A stretch of DNA of 64,000 nt from contig QCGK01000001.1 in the NCBI GenBank assembly GCA_003279945.1, forward strand, positions 302,211 to 366,210, read 5' to 3'. Under the pieces are notes generated by a model. The model had not been told where the DNA came from, did no database searches, and worked only from the letters and a program-made list of their open reading frames with translations. The stretch comes from Prochlorococcus sp. AG-388-A01. Its GTDB lineage: Bacteria; Cyanobacteriota; Cyanobacteriia; PCC-6307; Cyanobiaceae. This document shows, piece by piece, positions 10,051 to 44,798 of the stretch (position 1 is the stretch's first letter; each line of letters opens with the position of its first letter). The translations under genes and the position numbers were made by a program.

Positions 10051-10061
10051 GAAAACCCTTT

Positions 10062-10143
10062 GCGGACGTGGCGGAATTGGTAGACGCGCACGTCTAAGGA
10101 GCGTGTGGCTTAGGCCTTGCGAGTTCAAGTCTCGCCGTCCGCA
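10062..10143 (+). tRNA. tRNA-Leu, anticodon AAG as read from the sequence
   Basis: Class II tRNA of 82 bases. Acceptor strands GCGGACG and CGTCCGC pair fully with discriminator A at 10143; CCA is not encoded. The D arm is GCGGAATTGGTAGACGC. The anticodon stem is CACGT/GCGTG around the loop CTAAGGA, placing the anticodon AAG at 10096-10098 between T33 and G37. The long variable arm contains GGC/GCC, and the T arm is GCGAG-TTCAAGT-CTCGC. The long variable arm and overall sequence say leucine. An A at position 34 is unusual for bacteria. Confidence 0.95.
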
Positions 10144-10147
10144 TTTT

Positions 10148-18954: not shown

Positions 18955-19009
18955 ATACGATAAAACTTAATAAAAAAACTATTCAATACTCATTTTGCCT
19001 GTCAGAATA

Positions 19010-19275
19010 TAAATGTCCAATTGGACTAGGTGATCTCAACCGATGTTTCGGACAGCGGTTCGATTCCGCTCAACTCCACTATTTGGGGTTGTAATGGTTT
19101 CGACGGGGCATAAGGAAGGTGACTGAAGCCGGCTCGGTTAGAGCAAAAAACACAAACGCTAACAAAATCGTTAGTTTCTCCCGTCAAACAGCACCAGTTG
19201 CTGCTTGATCCTAAAGGAGATGGGGTCATATCAGCCTTATCAACCAAATGATACGCGGAGTCTGGAAGGACTCCA
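19010..19275 (+). ncRNA. ssrA: Permuted two-piece tmRNA
   Basis: Rescues stalled ribosomes. The gene is circularly permuted: the acceptor piece comes first, with T arm AGCGG-TTCGATT-CCGCT (19054-19070), 3' acceptor strand CAACTCC (19071-19077) and discriminator A. After a 6-base spacer (19079-19084) comes the 5' acceptor strand GGGGTTG (19085-19091), which pairs with CAACTCC. The tag frame runs from 19158 to the stop at 19206-19208 and reads ANKIVSFSRQTAPVAA. Two-piece tmRNA is established for this cyanobacterial group. The 5' end of the acceptor piece is uncertain. Confidence 0.93.
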
Positions 19276-19282
19276 CTTTTTT
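19257..19282 (+). terminator. Intrinsic terminator of tmRNA
   Basis: Perfect stem GGAGTC (19257-19262) with GACTCC (19269-19274), loop TGGAAG, followed by ACTTTTTT. It directly follows the tmRNA coding piece, and part of the stem may remain in the mature RNA. Confidence 0.8.
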
Positions 19283-19436
19283 AAATAACTAAGAAGTTGT
19301 AGTAGATAATTTGTTAGCGTGTAAATATTGCTGCAATTGGCTGTATTAAAAAAAAAATTTTTAATTTTATAAGTATAAATACTGAGAAGATAAGTTTTAA
19401 ATTAATTTATCTTATTAAAAACTCCAATCTTACAAA

Positions 19437-39001: not shown

Positions 39002-39715
39002 TTAAGTTATCGATAACTTCCAACGCCTCTTTAAATAATTGCAATATTCGCATGTTGATGAAGGTTTAGGAAAAGTATCCGATCGTAATAAATTGACCGT
39101 ATCAATTATTGTCTGTTCTACCCATGTTGTAGAGCACTCTAATCTAATCAGATGTACATCAAAATTTAATTGATTATTAAAAAACTCTTCATTTTTTTTT
39201 CCATTAAAATATAAAAGATATGCTTCTTTCGCAACTTTAAAACCATTTTTTTCAAAAAGCCACTGATACATCTCAAGTTGTCTCTTATAAGCTTTTGCAT
39301 ATTCATATTTATTAAAAGTCTCAGACCAATCAAAATTATTTCTTGATGTTGCTTTTACATCAACAATAATAAGATCGCCATTTTTTTTCTGCCAAATATC
39401 ATCCACAGCTCCACCAAAATCATAATGATGTTCGATTGACCTATACCTTATTCCTTGAAAATTACTTCTCCAACGTTCTAAATCTTTATGTTTAAAAGGA
39501 ACAGCATCAATACAATGATCAATAAATAAAGGATGAGGTTCCTGAATTCTTCTATAATGATCAAATTCATTTTTACATAAATTATCTACAGCTATATTTA
39601 AGGTAAATGGTAATGATGGCGGTTTTATTTGATATTTTTTATCAAGTACGCAACATCTTTGACAACTAAGATATTTCTCTATAGTAGTTCGACTTAATTT
39701 AATAATCTCGCTCAT
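39002..39715 (-). CDS. PD-(D/E)XK nuclease with Cas4/RecB-like cysteines
   Basis: Protein of 237 residues. The nuclease core shows D105 in FGGAVDD, D119 and K121 in LIIVDVKAT and the following QLEMY (Q146, Y150), the motif order of RecB-type nucleases. Cysteines lie at C18, C21 and C22 near the N-terminus and C222 and C225 near the C-terminus, the split arrangement used for a 4Fe-4S cluster in Cas4 and AddB proteins. No cas genes or repeats are nearby, so a CRISPR role is not supported. A DNA-repair or end-processing nuclease is more likely. Confidence 0.8.
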   Translation of the reverse strand: MSEIIKLSRTTIEKYLSCQRCCVLDKKYQIKPPSLPFTLNIAVDNLCKNEFDHYRRIQEPHPLFIDHCIDAVPFKHKDLERWRSNFQGIRYRSIEHHYDFGGAVDDIWQKKNGDLIIVDVKATSRNNFDWSETFNKYEYAKAYKRQLEMYQWLFEKNGFKVAKEAYLLYFNGKKNEEFFNNQLNFDVHLIRLECSTTWVEQTIIDTVNLLRSDTFPKPSSTCEYCNYLKRRWKLSIT

Positions 39716-39832
39716 TACGATTTCAATCTCATTTAAAAAAAATTTCTTACGTAAATTATAAGTCTTAATATTTTAGAAAATTTTGTTCTTAAGTTTATTC
39801 TGCTATAGAGTATTAAATAATATTTATTATTT

Positions 39833-40804
39833 ATGCGGATAATAAAGCAATCTGATAACTATTCCAAAGCAACATGGCTGAAAACCGATTTCCCAGCTCT
39901 TATAATTGATGATTTCATAAGTATTCAAGATTGTGAAAAACTCATTCTTGATGGCGAGAATTTTATAAAATCTCAGGCAAAAAGCAATTCAGTAATTCAT
40001 GGTGGAAGAGTTATGATTCCTTTTTCTTCAAATAAATTTAATGAGCTTGTAAAAGAAAGCAGGACTTGGGATAAATTTTCCAGAATATTTAGGAATAAAT
40101 GCTTTAAATTTATTATGAATGAATTAAACAATATCCAAAACTTATCAGAGATTTCCAAATCTTCTATAGAAGAATTTAAACATACAGAATTAAAAAAAAA
40201 AGATACTTTTAACATACTATCGAAATTTAATTTTGGAGATCTTGAAAAGAAATATAGTGCTTTATTAGAATATAAAATAGGTTCTATTCCACCTTATAAA
40301 TTATTATCCATATCACTTCTTAGAATTCTTGATACATATTTTAGAAGATTAATATCATTTAAAGATTATTTATTTAGGAAAAAGCCCCTAATACCACTGT
40401 TCGACTATAGCTTCTCAAGTAATGGTTACGGTAGAGAAATACATAGAGATTCTGATAACAGGTTAATAGTAGTGCTTTTATACTTAAATAATTTAGATAA
40501 ATATACTTTAGGCGGAGATCTTGAAATTTATAATATCAAAAAAGAAAAAATTAAAGACAACAAATACCCCCCTCAACCTAACAAAAAAGATTGTGATCTG
40601 GAGTACATCATAAAACCAAAAAGAGGACGGTTGGTTATGTTTGTTAATCAATTTAATTCATATCATGGCGTATCCGAAATGATAAATGACACAAGAGGTA
40701 GACATTTTATATATGGAGGTTTCACTTATCCAAGTTCAATATTTGTTAATAATAAAAGGCTTTTAAATACAAAATCAAAAACGGAAATGTTTTTATATAA
40801 CTAA
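39833..40804 (+). CDS. 2-oxoglutarate/Fe(II)-dependent dioxygenase (prolyl-hydroxylase-like)
   Basis: Protein of 323 residues. The C-terminal half has the double-stranded helix motifs: IHRDSD (iron ligands H204 and D206), GGDLEIY, GRLVMFVNQFNSYHGVSEM (distal ligand H278) and an Arg in RGRHF (R288/R290) for the 2-oxoglutarate carboxylate. The first 150 residues match nothing I know. The substrate is unknown; prolyl, lipid-linked or sugar-linked targets are possible. It is the last intact gene before the guaA-tail duplicate. Confidence 0.82.
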   Translation: MRIIKQSDNYSKATWLKTDFPALIIDDFISIQDCEKLILDGENFIKSQAKSNSVIHGGRVMIPFSSNKFNELVKESRTWDKFSRIFRNKCFKFIMNELNNIQNLSEISKSSIEEFKHTELKKKDTFNILSKFNFGDLEKKYSALLEYKIGSIPPYKLLSISLLRILDTYFRRLISFKDYLFRKKPLIPLFDYSFSSNGYGREIHRDSDNRLIVVLLYLNNLDKYTLGGDLEIYNIKKEKIKDNKYPPQPNKKDCDLEYIIKPKRGRLVMFVNQFNSYHGVSEMINDTRGRHFIYGGFTYPSSIFVNNKRLLNTKSKTEMFLYN

Positions 40805-40856
40805 AAATTCTATAAATGTAAAAAACTAAAAAATATAAAGAATTTAAAACCTAATG

Positions 40857-40912
40857 AATCAGATTATAACTGGATTCTTAAACTCCTTTTATTCCCACTC
40901 TATAGTACCGAG
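40857..40912. repeat. Duplicate of the guaA 3' end and flank (att-like, distal copy)
   Basis: These 56 bases align without gaps to 43180-43235, at the true guaA end, with about 45 of 56 positions equal. On the minus strand they still encode GTIEWE and the stop of GuaA, with silent differences (GGT ACT ATA against GGA ACT ATT). Upstream codons do not match. The two copies are offset by 2323 bases. Confidence 0.75.
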
Positions 40913-40956
40913 AAAAAGGGTAGTCATAAACGTAGTGATACCAACATGTTAGAGTC

Positions 40957-40994
40957 TATAATAACACACATTTTCCTGAGGGAAACCTTTTTTT
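40957..40994 (+). promoter_or_regulatory. TATAAT box followed by hairpin and T-run
   Basis: A perfect TATAAT at 40957-40962 stands 9 bases before a hairpin TTTCC-TGAG-GGAAA (40972-40985) followed by CC and seven T. The hairpin faces the plus strand. It could terminate the oxygenase transcript or a short RNA, or act as an attenuator in the leader of the gene at 41102. No clear -35 box. Confidence 0.45.
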
Positions 40995-41101
40995 AGATCA
41001 AATTTATTTAATAAAAACTTAAAATTTATTACTCTGTCACAGTAAATTAAACTATCACTTTAATATGAATCAATGAGAAGAAAAATTATCCTTGATATTT
41101 A

Positions 41102-41419
41102 ATGTTGCGACTTCTTCCACTCCCGATTTTTATTTGCATTTATCTATTCTCTTGGTGGAGATGTAAAAAAAATATTATCGCTAGCGATAAGCAACTAAAA
41201 CAATGCATTGATTGGGCATATGTAAAGAATTTACCTCTCCCACCAAAACCTTCATTTATCGAGTTCTATATTGTTTATGTTTCTTCTTTTTTTAAATTTC
41301 CTTTTGGGATAATTGTTCAACAACTACCTTTCTCAAAAAAAGTAAGATACTACGAAAGAGAAATGAAATTAATATTTGATAAATGGAATTTAGAAAAAAT
41401 TAAGAAAATAATTAACTAA
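41102..41419 (+). CDS. Hypothetical membrane-associated protein (105 aa)
   Basis: I do not recognise it. One N-terminal hydrophobic segment (LLPLPIFICIYLFSWWR, 3-19) is followed by a basic soluble part with PLPPKPSF and another moderately hydrophobic stretch (about 57-75). The C-terminus is a charged amphipathic helix. It lies inside the 2.3 kb interval bounded by the guaA-tail copies, and its stop codon is 1 base before a truncated nuclease-type reading frame, suggesting an old operon. Confidence 0.65.
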   Translation: MLRLLPLPIFICIYLFSWWRCKKNIIASDKQLKQCIDWAYVKNLPLPPKPSFIEFYIVYVSSFFKFPFGIIVQQLPFSKKVRYYEREMKLIFDKWNLEKIKKIIN

Positions 41420-41420
41420 T

Positions 41421-41597
41421 TTGTCTAGGAAACCAAAAAAAGAATTGTTAAAAATATCTTGTTGGAATTCAGATTGGGCAACTCCTACATCTAAGAGAGG
41501 TAAGTTTTTTATTGATAAATTTGATTCTGATATTATATGCCTTACAGAGGGATATGAGAATCTGCTCCCAAAAGTTAGTTACAACCCCATTTATTGA
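41421..41597 (+). pseudogene. Truncated endonuclease/exonuclease/phosphatase (EEP) family gene
   Basis: An open frame from TTG at 41421 reads ISCWNSDWATPTSKRGKFF and FDSDIICLTEGYENLLPK, the N-terminal pattern of EEP-fold hydrolases (metal-binding Asn and Glu strands). It then runs into the 3' end of the convergent TPR gene and stops at 41595-41597 after about 58 codons, while the family needs 220 or more. The break near 41573 therefore marks a rearrangement joint. No C-terminal part is seen elsewhere in the window. Confidence 0.7.
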
Positions 41598-42069
41598 AAA
41601 ACTCTTCTGCCGCTCCAAATCCTAAATCCATAGAAATTCGTAAATCCAAACAATAACCTTTCTTATCTCCTAAATAATTTTTAGTTGTTGCACGATCTAA
41701 ATAAAGTGCTCCAAAAGTAGGATCTAAATCTATCGCCTTATTTATAAATCCTAATGCTGCATAATGTTTTTTTAAATATCCATGAGACATAGAAAGCATT
41801 AAATAAACACGAGATTTAGATTTTGATGATAAGTTGGGGTATTTTTTTAAAATTTTCTGAAATTTCAAAATTGCTTGTTTGTTATTACCTTTATCAAATA
41901 TCTGAAGTGCATTTTCAAAATCGTAATTAAAAGAATCTGCTAATATTTTTTCTGAATATGAAATTATCATTACAGAACTTGATAAGACAATTAAATTTTT
42001 AATAATCAAAGGTTGCCCAAAAGGAATTAAAGATAATATTGCGCCAATAAAAGCAGTTCGTTTTTTCAT
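41575..42069 (-). CDS. TPR-containing secreted/anchored protein, paralogue 1
   Basis: Protein of 164 residues. Residues 1-45 form an N-terminal hydrophobic leader (MKKRTAFIGAILSLIPFGQ...) that may be a signal peptide or anchor. Two to three degenerate TPR helices follow (ALQIFDKGNNKQAILKFQKIL; HYAALGFINKAIDLDPTFGALYLDRA). The C-terminus ends with Cys. The first 16 residues match paralogue 2 almost exactly while the rest diverges. Function unknown; TPRs mediate protein contacts. Its 3' end overlaps the EEP fragment. Confidence 0.78.
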   Translation of the reverse strand: MKKRTAFIGAILSLIPFGQPLIIKNLIVLSSSVMIISYSEKILADSFNYDFENALQIFDKGNNKQAILKFQKILKKYPNLSSKSKSRVYLMLSMSHGYLKKHYAALGFINKAIDLDPTFGALYLDRATTKNYLGDKKGYCLDLRISMDLGFGAAEEFFNKWGCN

Positions 42070-42140
42070 ATCAAAATTTACTTTTAATTAATATACCAAC
42101 TGTAGAGAAAATGAACTTTATACGATTTCTCTTAAGAGAC
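42023..42140 (-). repeat. 118-bp promoter/leader module, copy 1
   Basis: Nearly identical (about 113 of 118 positions) to 42951-43068. It covers the first codons of the TPR gene, its ATG, an untranslated region with a TATATT-like -10 box on the minus strand, and a perfect palindrome TCTCTTAAGAGA at 42128-42139. Similarity stops at the same point in both copies. Confidence 0.85.
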
Positions 42141-42155
42141 AGTCAATTAGGTCAA

Positions 42156-42235
42156 TGACAAACCCGTGACAAACTGAGGGGGTGGAATCCCAGTATTTCC
42201 GTTTCTATCTCATACGTGACAAACTGGTGACAAAC
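42156..42235. repeat. TGACAAAC direct repeats in two 11-bp-spaced pairs
   Basis: TGACAAAC occurs at 42156-42163, 42167-42174, 42217-42224 and 42228-42235. Within each pair the spacing is 11 bp start to start, one helical turn; the pairs are 61 bp apart. They begin 16 bases beyond the 118-bp module. The layout suits cooperative protein binding. Confidence 0.75.
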
Positions 42236-42322
42236 CGAAGACTTCCATTCTTTATACTTTTCTCTGTAATTAGATGCACTAATTGTTGAGAATACGTCTT
42301 TAATTTCAATAACTTTTTAAAA

Positions 42323-42997
42323 TTAACAATTTTCCTTTATCCAACTTTTATTAGCATCCTCATCACCCAAAGAAAATGCTTTTTTTGCATCTGCACAAGC
42401 ACCTTTAATATCTCCAATATTCTCTTTAGATACACTTCTATTCGTATATGCTAATGCATATGCTGGATCAATTTCTATAGATTTTGTATAGTCAGATATC
42501 GCTCCATAATCATCTTTAATTTTGGATTTTGTATATCCACGGTTGTTATATGCTTTTGAATAATTTGGATCAATTTCTATAGATTTTGTATAGTCAGATA
42601 TCGCTCCGTAATAATCTTTTAAATCACTTTTAGCATTGCCACGATTGTAATATGCATCTACATCATTTGGATTAATTTCTATCGCTTTTATATAGTCAGA
42701 TATCGCTCCATAATTATCTTTCAGTCTTCTTTTTGCATTACCACGATTGTAATAAGCACCCCCACTAGGATTAATTTCTATAGATTTTGTATAGTCAGAT
42801 ATCGCTCCATAATTATCACCGTTTCTCCCCTTTTCCAAAGCACGATTAAAATAAAACGTATAAGTTTCTGCATTTACTTTTTCAGGTAAAGCAATCAAAC
42901 CTGTCGATGATAAAACTACACCAGTTTTAATTAATAATGGATGCCCTAATGGAATTAAAGATAATATTGCGCCAATAAAAGCAGTTCGTTTTTTCAT
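42323..42997 (-). CDS. TPR-containing secreted/anchored protein, paralogue 2
   Basis: Protein of 224 residues with the same leader (MKKRTAFIGAILSLIPLG...) and then four highly regular 34-residue TPR units, marked by GAISDY at 64, 98, 132 and 166, each followed by KSIEI-P or KAIEINP and NRG. The C-terminal unit ends in SWIKENC. The repeats are nearly identical at DNA level, pointing to recent expansion or conversion. A periplasmic or membrane-bound scaffold is plausible; no partner is evident. Confidence 0.85.
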   Translation of the reverse strand: MKKRTAFIGAILSLIPLGHPLLIKTGVVLSSTGLIALPEKVNAETYTFYFNRALEKGRNGDNYGAISDYTKSIEINPSGGAYYNRGNAKRRLKDNYGAISDYIKAIEINPNDVDAYYNRGNAKSDLKDYYGAISDYTKSIEIDPNYSKAYNNRGYTKSKIKDDYGAISDYTKSIEIDPAYALAYTNRSVSKENIGDIKGACADAKKAFSLGDEDANKSWIKENC

Positions 42998-43068
42998 ATC
43001 AAAATTTACTTTTAATTAATATACCAACTATGGAGAAAACAAACTTTCTACGATTTCTCTTAAGAGAC
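42951..43068 (-). repeat. 118-bp promoter/leader module, copy 2
   Basis: Second copy of the module at 42023-42140, in the same orientation and with the palindrome TCTCTTAAGAGA at 43056-43067. It drives paralogue 2. The few differences lie in the untranslated part. Confidence 0.85.
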
Positions 43069-43082
43069 GCTGAAAAAGTGCT

Positions 43083-43173
43083 ACGTAAAACTCACGTAAA
43101 ACCACCATATTTTTTATCGCCCAAATCCGCTGCTATGACATAACCACTATTTTGAATATATTTCACGTAAAAC
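43083..43173. repeat. ACGTAAAAC direct repeats beside the guaA end
   Basis: ACGTAAAAC occurs at 43083-43091, 43094-43102 (11-bp spacing) and 43165-43173, the last only 6 bases before the guaA-tail repeat. Position and phasing mirror the TGACAAAC set upstream of paralogue 1, with a different word. Confidence 0.75.
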
Positions 43174-43179
43174 CGATAA

Positions 43180-43235
43180 ATTCAAGTTATAACTGGGTTC
43201 TGAAAATCCGTTTATTCCCACTCAATAGTTCCAGG
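43180..43235. repeat. guaA 3' end and flank (att-like, gene copy)
   Basis: The proximal partner of 40857-40912. It contains the last codons of the intact guaA, its stop (43212-43214) and 32 bases of downstream flank. Conservation continues past the stop codon, so it is not explained by protein constraint alone. Confidence 0.75.
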
Positions 43236-44798
43236 AGGTTTGCTTGTAATATCATAAACAACTCTATTAACTGAAACTACTTCATTAACAATTCTATTTG
43301 CAATCCTCTCCAAAATCTGAAAAGGAATTCTTGACCAATCCGCTGTCATACCATCTTCACTAGATACACAACGTAAAACTATTGGCCATGCATATGTCCT
43401 TTTATCACCCATAACCCCTACAGTTTTAACAGGCAATAATACTGCAAAAGCTTGCCAAATATCATTATAAAGACCTGCTTTTTTAATTTCATCTCTCACT
43501 ATCCAGTCTGCATCTCTTAAACAATCAAGTTTTTCATTATTCACTTCTCCTAAAATTCTTATAGCTAAACCTGGTCCTGGGAATGGATGCCTTTTTATAA
43601 TTTCATCCGGCAAACCTAAAGCAGCTCCCAATTTTCTGACTTCATCCTTAAAAAGTTTTCTTAATGGCTCAACTAATTTAAATTGTAAATCTTTTGGTAA
43701 TCCACCCACGTTATGATGACTCTTTATTTTTACAGCTATTCTTTCACCTGTCTTAGGATCAATATTAGTACCAGCACTCTCAATAACATCAGGATAAAGA
43801 GTGCCTTGAGCTAAGTAATGAAAAGGGCCTAGTCTATTACTTTCTTCTTCAAATACTCTAATAAATTCTTCACCAATAATTTTCCGTTTTTGTTCTGGAT
43901 CGGTAATCCCTTTTAGTTTGGCAATAAACCTTTCCCTTGCATTAATATATTCAACCTTTATATGAAATTTCTTATCAAAAAAATTCATTAAAAATTCTGG
44001 TTCGCCTTTTCTCATAAAGCCTTGATCTATAAACATGCATGTAAGCTTATTTCCAATTGCTTTATTGAGAAGAAAAGCGAGAGTTGACGAATCAACTCCT
44101 CCTGACAAGGCAAGCAAAACTTTTTTATTGCCAACTCGCTCTCTTATCCTAGGAATAGTCTCCTCTATAAAGGTTTCGGTTGTCCAATCAGCAGCACAAC
44201 TAGAAATTTTATAAACAAAATTTTTAATTAACGTCATCCCGAACTCTGAATGAATAACTTCAGGATGAAATTGAACGCCAAATAATTTTTTTCTATCATT
44301 TGCAATTGCTGCATGTAGTGTGTTCTCGGTATGCGCAATTTTATTAAATCCATCAGGCAAACAATTTATTGAATCGCCATGACTCATCCACATTATAGAT
44401 TTATCTGCTACATCAGAAAGAAGGGCAGATTCTTGATCTATGTTGATAGGTGCTCTACCATATTCAGCTTTTTTAGTTGCTGAAATAACAGATCCTCCAA
44501 GTTCTTTGACCATTAATTGCATCCCATAGCATATCCCTAAGATAGGAATTCCTAAATTAAAAATTTTTTCATCACATTTAGGAGCATTTTGTTCATATAC
44601 AGAATTTGGGCCTCCACTCAAAATGATACCTTTAGGATTAATTTCATTGATATCCTCAATTGAAATACAATTACTTACCACAAGAGAAAAAACATTTGTT
44701 TCTCTAATTCTTCTTGCAATCAATTCAGAATATTGAGATCCGAAATCTAAAATTAATATTGAAGGATCTCGTTCTTTTTTTAAAGATGTTTGACTCAT
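43212..44798 (-). CDS. guaA: GMP synthase (glutamine-hydrolysing)
   Basis: Converts XMP to GMP. The N-terminal class I glutamine amidotransferase domain has the catalytic Cys in [12 protein letters not shown] and the His/Glu in [11 protein letters not shown]. The synthetase domain has the PP-loop [14 protein letters not shown], and the dimerisation domain ends KPPGTIEWE, as in the family. Length 528 is normal and the gene is intact, although its 3' end looks like an integration target for the adjoining island. Confidence 0.97.

What the first reader, a model, noticed from the sequence alone, without database searches (positions are those of the whole stretch)
40857..43235. 2.3 kb island bounded by duplicated guaA 3' ends
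The last guaA codons and 32 bases beyond its stop recur 2323 bp away with about 80 percent identity and silent codon differences, and no gap. This is the signature of an element integrated at the guaA end, with one tail supplied by a different lineage. guaA is a known integration hotspot in other bacteria. Here no integrase remains, and the interior holds a small unknown gene, a broken gene and two TPR genes.
Basis: partly seen in the sequence, partly recalled or inferred. Interest (0 to 1): 0.72.

Follow-up and report, generated by a model that had tools for sequence, protein, structure and literature searches.

The report
Mobile-element pile-up behind guaA
Behind the guaA gene of this ocean bacterium, whose nearest named relatives are Prochlorococcus, lies a string of small DNA units with copies of the guaA gene end between them; related genomes carry other strings or nothing at the same spot, so it is likely a docking site where mobile DNA pieces pile up, predicted to be moved by integrase enzymes that very few of these genomes carry.

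Summary
The repeat is real. The guaA-end core (43212-43232) recurs at 40889-40909 in the same orientation, and a relaxed pattern finds only these two copies in the own genome. It marks site-specific integration. Of 84 distinct related loci with both flanks, 32 have guaA 40-77 bp from the next gene and 52 carry more, up to 14.5 kb. Filled guaA genes often take their stop codon from the insert, while a host-type tail sits at the far end. The window holds at least two, by my reading four, partly fused units over about 3.4 kb (39789-43232), not one 2.3-kb island. Unit ends carry pairs of an 11-bp word, the same word left and right in 27 of 28 testable units. Tyrosine integrases sit behind guaA in 5 of 266 genus genomes and at 8 of 10 further hits in other genera; the own genome has none. 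Most integrase-less units keep the integrase's leader (38 of 55). Best reading: a guaA-directed array of integrase-less (CIME-like) units built by accretion, likely mobilised in trans. New variant of a known kind; guaA is a known hotspot elsewhere. Excision and transfer were not tested.

The parts
43212..44798 (-). guaA, GMP synthase, the gene whose 3' end is the target site
   Evidence: Pfam GATase and GMP_synt_C
43212..43232 (-). core copy 1 at the end of guaA (left attachment site)
   Evidence: perfect pattern match, one of two in the own genome
43163..43211 (-). left end of unit A with one copy of its word (GGTTTTACGTG, 43163-43174)
   Evidence: matches left ends of other inserts, at guaA and inside arrays
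43081..43103 (-). second word pair of unit A (11-bp direct repeats), predicted arm-type sites
   Evidence: layout as in integrase-bearing elements; binding is inferred
43047..43068 (-). leader of unit A, like the one in front of the integrase genes
42323..42997 (-). TPR protein, 224 aa, in the slot that the integrase has in other elements
   Evidence: Pfam TPR_1; slot by comparison
42217..42300 (-). right end of unit A up to its word pair (42217-42241), fused there to the left end of unit B; the core between them is missing
   Evidence: in 6 other loci this half lies 58-63 bp before a core; fusion is inferred
42151..42241 (-). left-end part of unit B with word pairs (TTTGTCAC word)
   Evidence: in 5 other loci this half starts 31-40 bp after a core or the guaA stop
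42118..42144 (-). leader of unit B
41575..42069 (-). TPR-like protein, 164 aa
   Evidence: Pfam TPR_2 below its cut-off
41421..41597 (+). 58-aa open fragment, probably a broken gene; unit C begins here without its left end
   Evidence: no Pfam match; the segment shared with 8 other loci starts at 41421-41422
41102..41419 (+). 105-aa protein of unknown function, cargo of unit C
   Evidence: relatives at 89-95% in L043, L061, L067, L082 in other units
40897..41010 (-). right end of unit C with one word (GGTTTCCCTCAGG, 40975-40987)
   Evidence: matches right ends of other inserts
   Evidence: perfect pattern match
40845..40888 (-). left end of unit D
   Evidence: matches left ends of other units
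39833..40804 (+). 2OG-Fe(II) oxygenase-like gene, cargo of unit D
   Evidence: Pfam 2OG-FeII_Oxy_3; no tblastn hit in the 110 loci then held
39692..39788 (-). host flank that directly follows guaA in empty sites
   Evidence: matches empty-site flanks from +3 to +7 after the guaA stop
39002..39715 (-). PDDEXK-family gene, the neighbour of guaA in empty sites
   Evidence: Pfam PDDEXK_1; synteny

Best explanation
This is a tandem array of small DNA units behind guaA, with a second copy of the guaA 3' end inside it and no integrase gene, which likely arose by repeated site-specific integration at that gene end and is predicted to be movable only by an integrase supplied from elsewhere. Shown by sequence: the site is empty or differently filled in related genomes; cores around GAGTGGGA repeat in direct orientation; filled guaA genes often have a stop codon brought by the guest; unit ends carry paired 11-bp words at fixed places; a few relatives carry a tyrosine integrase behind guaA after the same kind of left end. 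Inferred: the words are arm-type binding sites of that integrase; units that share a word with an integrase-bearing element can be mobilised in trans; recombination between word pairs removes cores or interiors and so makes fused units (as at 42217-42241) and some of the roughly 140-bp mini-units. The role of the cargo for the host is not known.
For: 32 empty and 52 filled of 84 distinct loci with both flanks; state changes on a guaA tree as many as for shuffled labels (27 against 25.7 +/- 2.1). Core copies in inserts: no reversed copy at up to 4 mismatches. Stop codon TGA in 23 of 52 filled and 0 of 32 empty guaA genes; distal cores end in the host-type AGTAA in 23 of 29. Left-end word pairs: 10/10 match in 39 of 79 units and 9/10 in 10 more, against 0.13% and 3.6% of shuffles; same word at both ends in 27 of 28. 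Integrase relatives in 5 of 266 genus genomes, all five behind guaA, and behind guaA at 8 of 10 hits in other genera. Integrase N-terminal part follows the word better than the rest does (r 0.68 against 0.37, 11 proteins). Leader kept in 38 of 55 integrase-less large units, 0 of 1200 shuffles. The window's junctions match right and left ends of units elsewhere.
Against: No excision, circle or transfer was seen. 20 of 79 units had no assignable word and 17 of 55 no leader. 10 of 52 filled loci show no further core at up to 4 mismatches, and the window's last core is degenerate. Four word types have no known integrase, and the own genome has none. Integrases are rare, so some units may be relics spread by homologous recombination. 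Most loci come from draft single-cell genomes, where repeats can be misassembled. No relative was found in viral collections.
Confidence: 0.85

Rival explanations
1. The array is a relic: units integrated long ago, lost their integrases, and now pass between strains only by homologous recombination across guaA and the PDDEXK gene.
For: Integrase in only 5 of 266 genus genomes; damaged cores, a broken fragment and fused units in the window; the mini left end is at this one locus in the 21 of 266 genomes that have it.
Against: Integrase and left end at 98.2% between two genera whose guaA is 70.1% shows recent movement of at least one element without its guaA; intact word pairs and leaders are kept on many integrase-less units.
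Confidence: 0.35
2. The second copy is a fragment of guaA from another lineage left by a homologous exchange.
For: The two copies differ by silent changes.
Against: The sequence on either side of the second copy is unit right end and unit left end, not guaA flank; cores bound units in many genomes.
Confidence: 0.03
3. The copy is a conserved regulatory element of guaA.
For: The block CCCAGTTATAG recurs behind guaA in many filled loci.
Against: Empty sites lack it (L001 keeps a scar), and it comes with inserts.
Confidence: 0.02

Closest known systems
guaA-directed genomic islands, ICEs and IMEs (ICERspD18B, GIsul2, ATE-1, IncP island of Brucella suis; Song et al. 2012 as cited in PMC7775301)
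   Same: Target at the guaA 3' end, tyrosine integrase, direct repeats that hold GAGTGGGA (passages of PMC7775301; table passage of PMC5704250).
   Different: Those are single elements, in the case read of 28.5 kb with conjugation genes and alpA beside int. Here there are strings of mostly integrase-less units from 132 bp (core to core) to several kb, with paired 11-bp words.
Cis-mobilizable elements (CIMEs) and tandem accretion; integrase-less ssrA islands of Dehalococcoides
   Same: Units bounded by attachment sites that lack integration genes, in tandem behind one target gene (passages of PMC5704250, and PMC3146451).
   Different: Different target (ssrA in Dehalococcoides, which uses serine recombinases); here family-specific words, a kept integrase leader, and a mini-unit family.
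Tycheposons of Prochlorococcus
   Same: Integrative cargo elements with tyrosine recombinases in the same genus (secondary account in PMC10872708; main paper not held).
   Different: Described there as bordered by tRNA genes. In ten genus integrase loci that I looked at, eight had tRNA-Thr/Tyr genes nearby and none a comparable word pair.
PICMI phage satellites
   Same: Small marine elements with an integrase and, in two of ours, a DUF5906 domain as in the PICMI primase model.
   Different: No AlpA or Fis match among the proteins scanned, and no phage link found.

Membership tests
guaA-directed integrative elements | insert at the guaA 3' end, bounded by direct repeats that hold GAGTGGGA | tested here: met
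   window cores 43212-43232 and 40889-40909; empty and filled relatives
guaA-directed integrative elements | own tyrosine integrase | tested here: not met
   no PF00589 match in the own genome, 88% complete; present in 5 of 266 genus genomes
CIME / accretion array | units bounded by attachment sites that lack integration and transfer genes, in tandem | tested here: met
   transfer genes were looked for only by Pfam on the window's ORFs
CIME / accretion array | attachment sites still usable, moved with or by another element | not testable with these tools
   needs excision or transfer tests
Tycheposon | bordered by a tRNA gene | tested here: not met
   target is guaA; the only tRNA or tmRNA genes in the window lie at 10061-10144 and 18989-19299
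PICMI satellite | integrase, AlpA, primase with DUF5906/DUF3987, and Fis regulator together | tested here: not met
   window: none in its array genes; integrase-bearing relatives: integrase in the five loci, DUF5906 in two, no AlpA or Fis match in the proteins scanned, which were not all ORFs

The most novel reading that the evidence does not exclude
guaA in picocyanobacteria is a shared dock run by a lock-and-key code: elements use the same guaA core, but each family has its own doubled 11-bp word, read by the N-terminal domain of its integrase. Rare integrase carriers mobilise a large commons of integrase-less cargo units, down to 140-bp mini-units, that bear the same word, and cargo genes ride in the integrase's own slot behind its leader.
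Probability: 0.4. Interest if true: 0.8.

Novelty: new variant of a known kind. Interest (0 to 1): 0.6.

Why it matters
The site is filled in 52 of 84 distinct related loci, so this one place adds to gene turnover in one of the ocean's most abundant phototrophs (abundance recalled). Cargo includes restriction-modification, sulfotransferase, acyltransferase and many TPR proteins. If the words are what they seem, they give a testable rule for which integrase can move which integrase-less island, a question open for genomic islands in general.

Tried and rejected
Phage origin: the integrases of L031 and L067 gave no relative in IMG/VR, that of L031 none in the INPHARED phages, and three DNA patterns of unit ends none in viral contigs. 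The scans use narrow patterns, so this does not exclude a phage link. The integrase of L031 had no PDB sequence match.

That all mini-units are internal deletions: 5 of 18 match larger units from the left core onward and at the right end (L092 100% and 98% to L013); 12 share a left end that I saw on mini-units only; L095 fits neither. The left-end 26-mer (up to 2 mismatches) occurs once each in 21 of 266 genomes: 17 directly behind guaA, 3 with the PDDEXK gene in the fetched stretch, and one (L192) with neither in reach but with the 26-mer of the L027 array unit; the next core lies 112-133 bp on in 18 of 21.

Cargo counts rest on 109 of 124 ORFs of at least 100 aa from L001-L080; I left out 10 genes of integrase-bearing elements and 5 others to shorten the list. 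The words were chosen by eye, and those of the correlation were put in register by hand on 11 proteins.

Full report
What was claimed. A 2.3-kb island between two guaA 3' ends, one of them from another lineage.

Check. The repeat is there (78 nt, spacing 2323, 76% without gaps; 80% over 65 bp, E 5e-10). A relaxed core pattern with up to three mismatches hits only these two places in the own genome, both perfect; the backward control gave one match per strand.

Relatives. One search fetched 80 loci that encode guaA, titled Prochlorococcus or Synechococcaceae. One search covered 151 genomes of the genus and kept 30 loci; one search took 20 more stretches. With the window, 131 loci held the guaA end, 112 of them distinct (the window counts as a duplicate of its own genome's locus L081); 84 of these had guaA and the PDDEXK gene. 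In 32 the gap is 40-77 bp (L001, gap 40, keeps a scar of a unit's left end). In 12 it is 191-555 bp and in 40 from 1.0 to 14.5 kb. On a guaA tree of 83 of these loci the filled state changes at least 27 times, against 25.7 +/- 2.1 in 500 shuffles of the labels: no phylogenetic signal.

Site of exchange. Empty guaA genes end in GAGTGGGAGTAA (25 of 32), GAGTGGGAGTAG (4) or GAGTGGGAATAA (3). Filled ones end in TGA in 23 of 52 (0 of 32 empty; Fisher p 2e-6) and in GAGTGGGAGTAA in 3 of 52. In 29 filled loci a distal core was recognised near the PDDEXK gene; 23 of these end in AGTAA, the host form. So the guest brings guaA's stop codon and the host's tail moves to the far end, as expected if the exchange lies in GAGTGGGA, the cut site reported for guaA islands elsewhere (passages of PMC7775301). 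Up to four further cores stand in one insert; none was reversed at up to 4 mismatches; 10 of 52 filled loci showed no further core.

Anatomy of a unit. From the core: some 30-45 bp often holding CCCAGTTATAG; a pair of 11-bp words at about +40; a spacer; a second pair at about +100; a leader like TCTCTATAGAGAAATCGTAGA at about +138; then a gene. At the right end another pair, mostly 59-73 bp before the next core. Of 79 core-to-core units, 39 have a 10/10 pair in the left end and 10 more a 9/10 pair; shuffles give 0.13% and 3.6%. The word is the same left and right in 27 of 28 large units that have two or more copies at both ends; 20 of 79 units could not be given a word.

Integrase. Five distinct loci carry the tyrosine integrase (454-491 aa): L031, L067, L077, L121, L122. 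It starts 203-222 bp behind guaA in four and about 1 kb behind it, after two small ORFs, in L121. Its relatives occur in 5 of 266 genomes of the genus, which are these five loci. In a search of 300 genomes of the family, 10 matches lay outside the genus: 8 stand behind guaA, 7 of these with at least one 9/10 word pair, and two had no guaA in the stretch taken; L171, L172 and L173 are broken by stops. On 11 integrases the N-terminal part follows the word (r 0.68, 0 of 5000 permutations) better than the rest (r 0.37, p 0.03); partial 0.62. L077 and L171, of two genera, share integrase and left end at 98.2% over 1695 bp while guaA is 70.1%.

Three of the four words seen with genus integrases also occur on integrase-less large units (TTTGTTGCG 4, TTTCCCGT 3, CTCACC[CT] 4); the fourth (TCACACA) does not by this count. 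Words of integrases from other genera do too (TTTCACGT 3, TTTCACAC/AT 6). TTTGTCAC, TTTTACGT, TTTCCCTCAG and TTACACGT have no known integrase. Trans-mobilisation is inferred from this.

The integrase-bearing elements also carry a 314-327-aa protein and a 216-266-aa HxH protein (each in four of the five genus loci), serine resolvases, and in two a DUF5906 protein; the tested queries did not hit other loci of the set. Integrase-less large units keep the leader in 38 of 55, integrase-bearing ones in 4 of 5, shuffles 0 of 1200. In the window, L023, L058 and L080 a TPR gene follows the leader where the integrase would stand.

The window. Unit A (word TTTTACGT, TPR224) runs from guaA to a right word pair at 42217-42241 and is there joined to the left end of unit B (TPR164). 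In other loci the first half lies 58-63 bp before a core (6 loci) and the second half starts 31-40 bp after a core or the guaA stop (5 loci), so the ends and core between A and B are missing; recombination between word pairs would do this (inferred). The segment with the 105-aa gene starts at 41421-41422 in 8 other loci and goes on to a right end of the TTTCCCTCAG family, as in L139: unit C, without its left end. Core 40889-40909 joins C to unit D with the oxygenase gene. D's far core is degenerate; host flank resumes at 39788. Four units is my reading; the two intact cores alone prove two.

Mini-units. 18 of 79 units measure 132-164 bp from core to core. Five look like internal deletions through the word pairs, 12 share a private left end, one fits neither. 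That left end is in 21 of 266 genomes, once each, and in at least 20 of 21 at this locus. Its origin is open.

Cargo. Of 109 proteins scanned, 26 match TPR_11 and 14 a sulfotransferase; one insert holds type I restriction-modification genes, another a NotI-like nuclease.

Known or new. guaA as a hotspot, integrase-less att-bounded units, and tandem accretion are in print (passages). Searches for Prochlorococcus with guaA (6 papers) and for Synechococcus with guaA and integrase (1 paper) listed no title or abstract on guaA integration in these organisms; of these papers I opened only PMC7775301, by passages, and the main tycheposon paper is not held. Hence: new variant of a known kind.

Noticed in passing
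L077:11588-13281 and L171:2753-4460: Integrase and left end 98.2% identical between two genera whose guaA genes are 70.1% identical: recent transfer. The L171 integrase has an internal stop.
   Followed up: partly
L027:12316-17167: An insert behind guaA without an integrase holds type I restriction and methylation/specificity proteins.
   Followed up: no
L121:3445-4200 and relatives in L031, L067, L122, L166, L167, L169: Protein family with invariant HxH and Y/NK residues, no Pfam match; perhaps a replication initiator.
   Followed up: partly
L144 (G000:C1:14994-15042, outside the window): A 49-bp stretch 84% like the start of the window's 224-aa TPR gene lies elsewhere in the own genome.
   Followed up: no
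43047-43068 and 42118-42144: A near-palindromic leader, also found before the integrase genes, may be a promoter or regulator site.
   Followed up: partly
L175-L195: A family of roughly 140-bp mini-units with a private left end and one of two words, in 21 of 266 genomes.
   Followed up: partly
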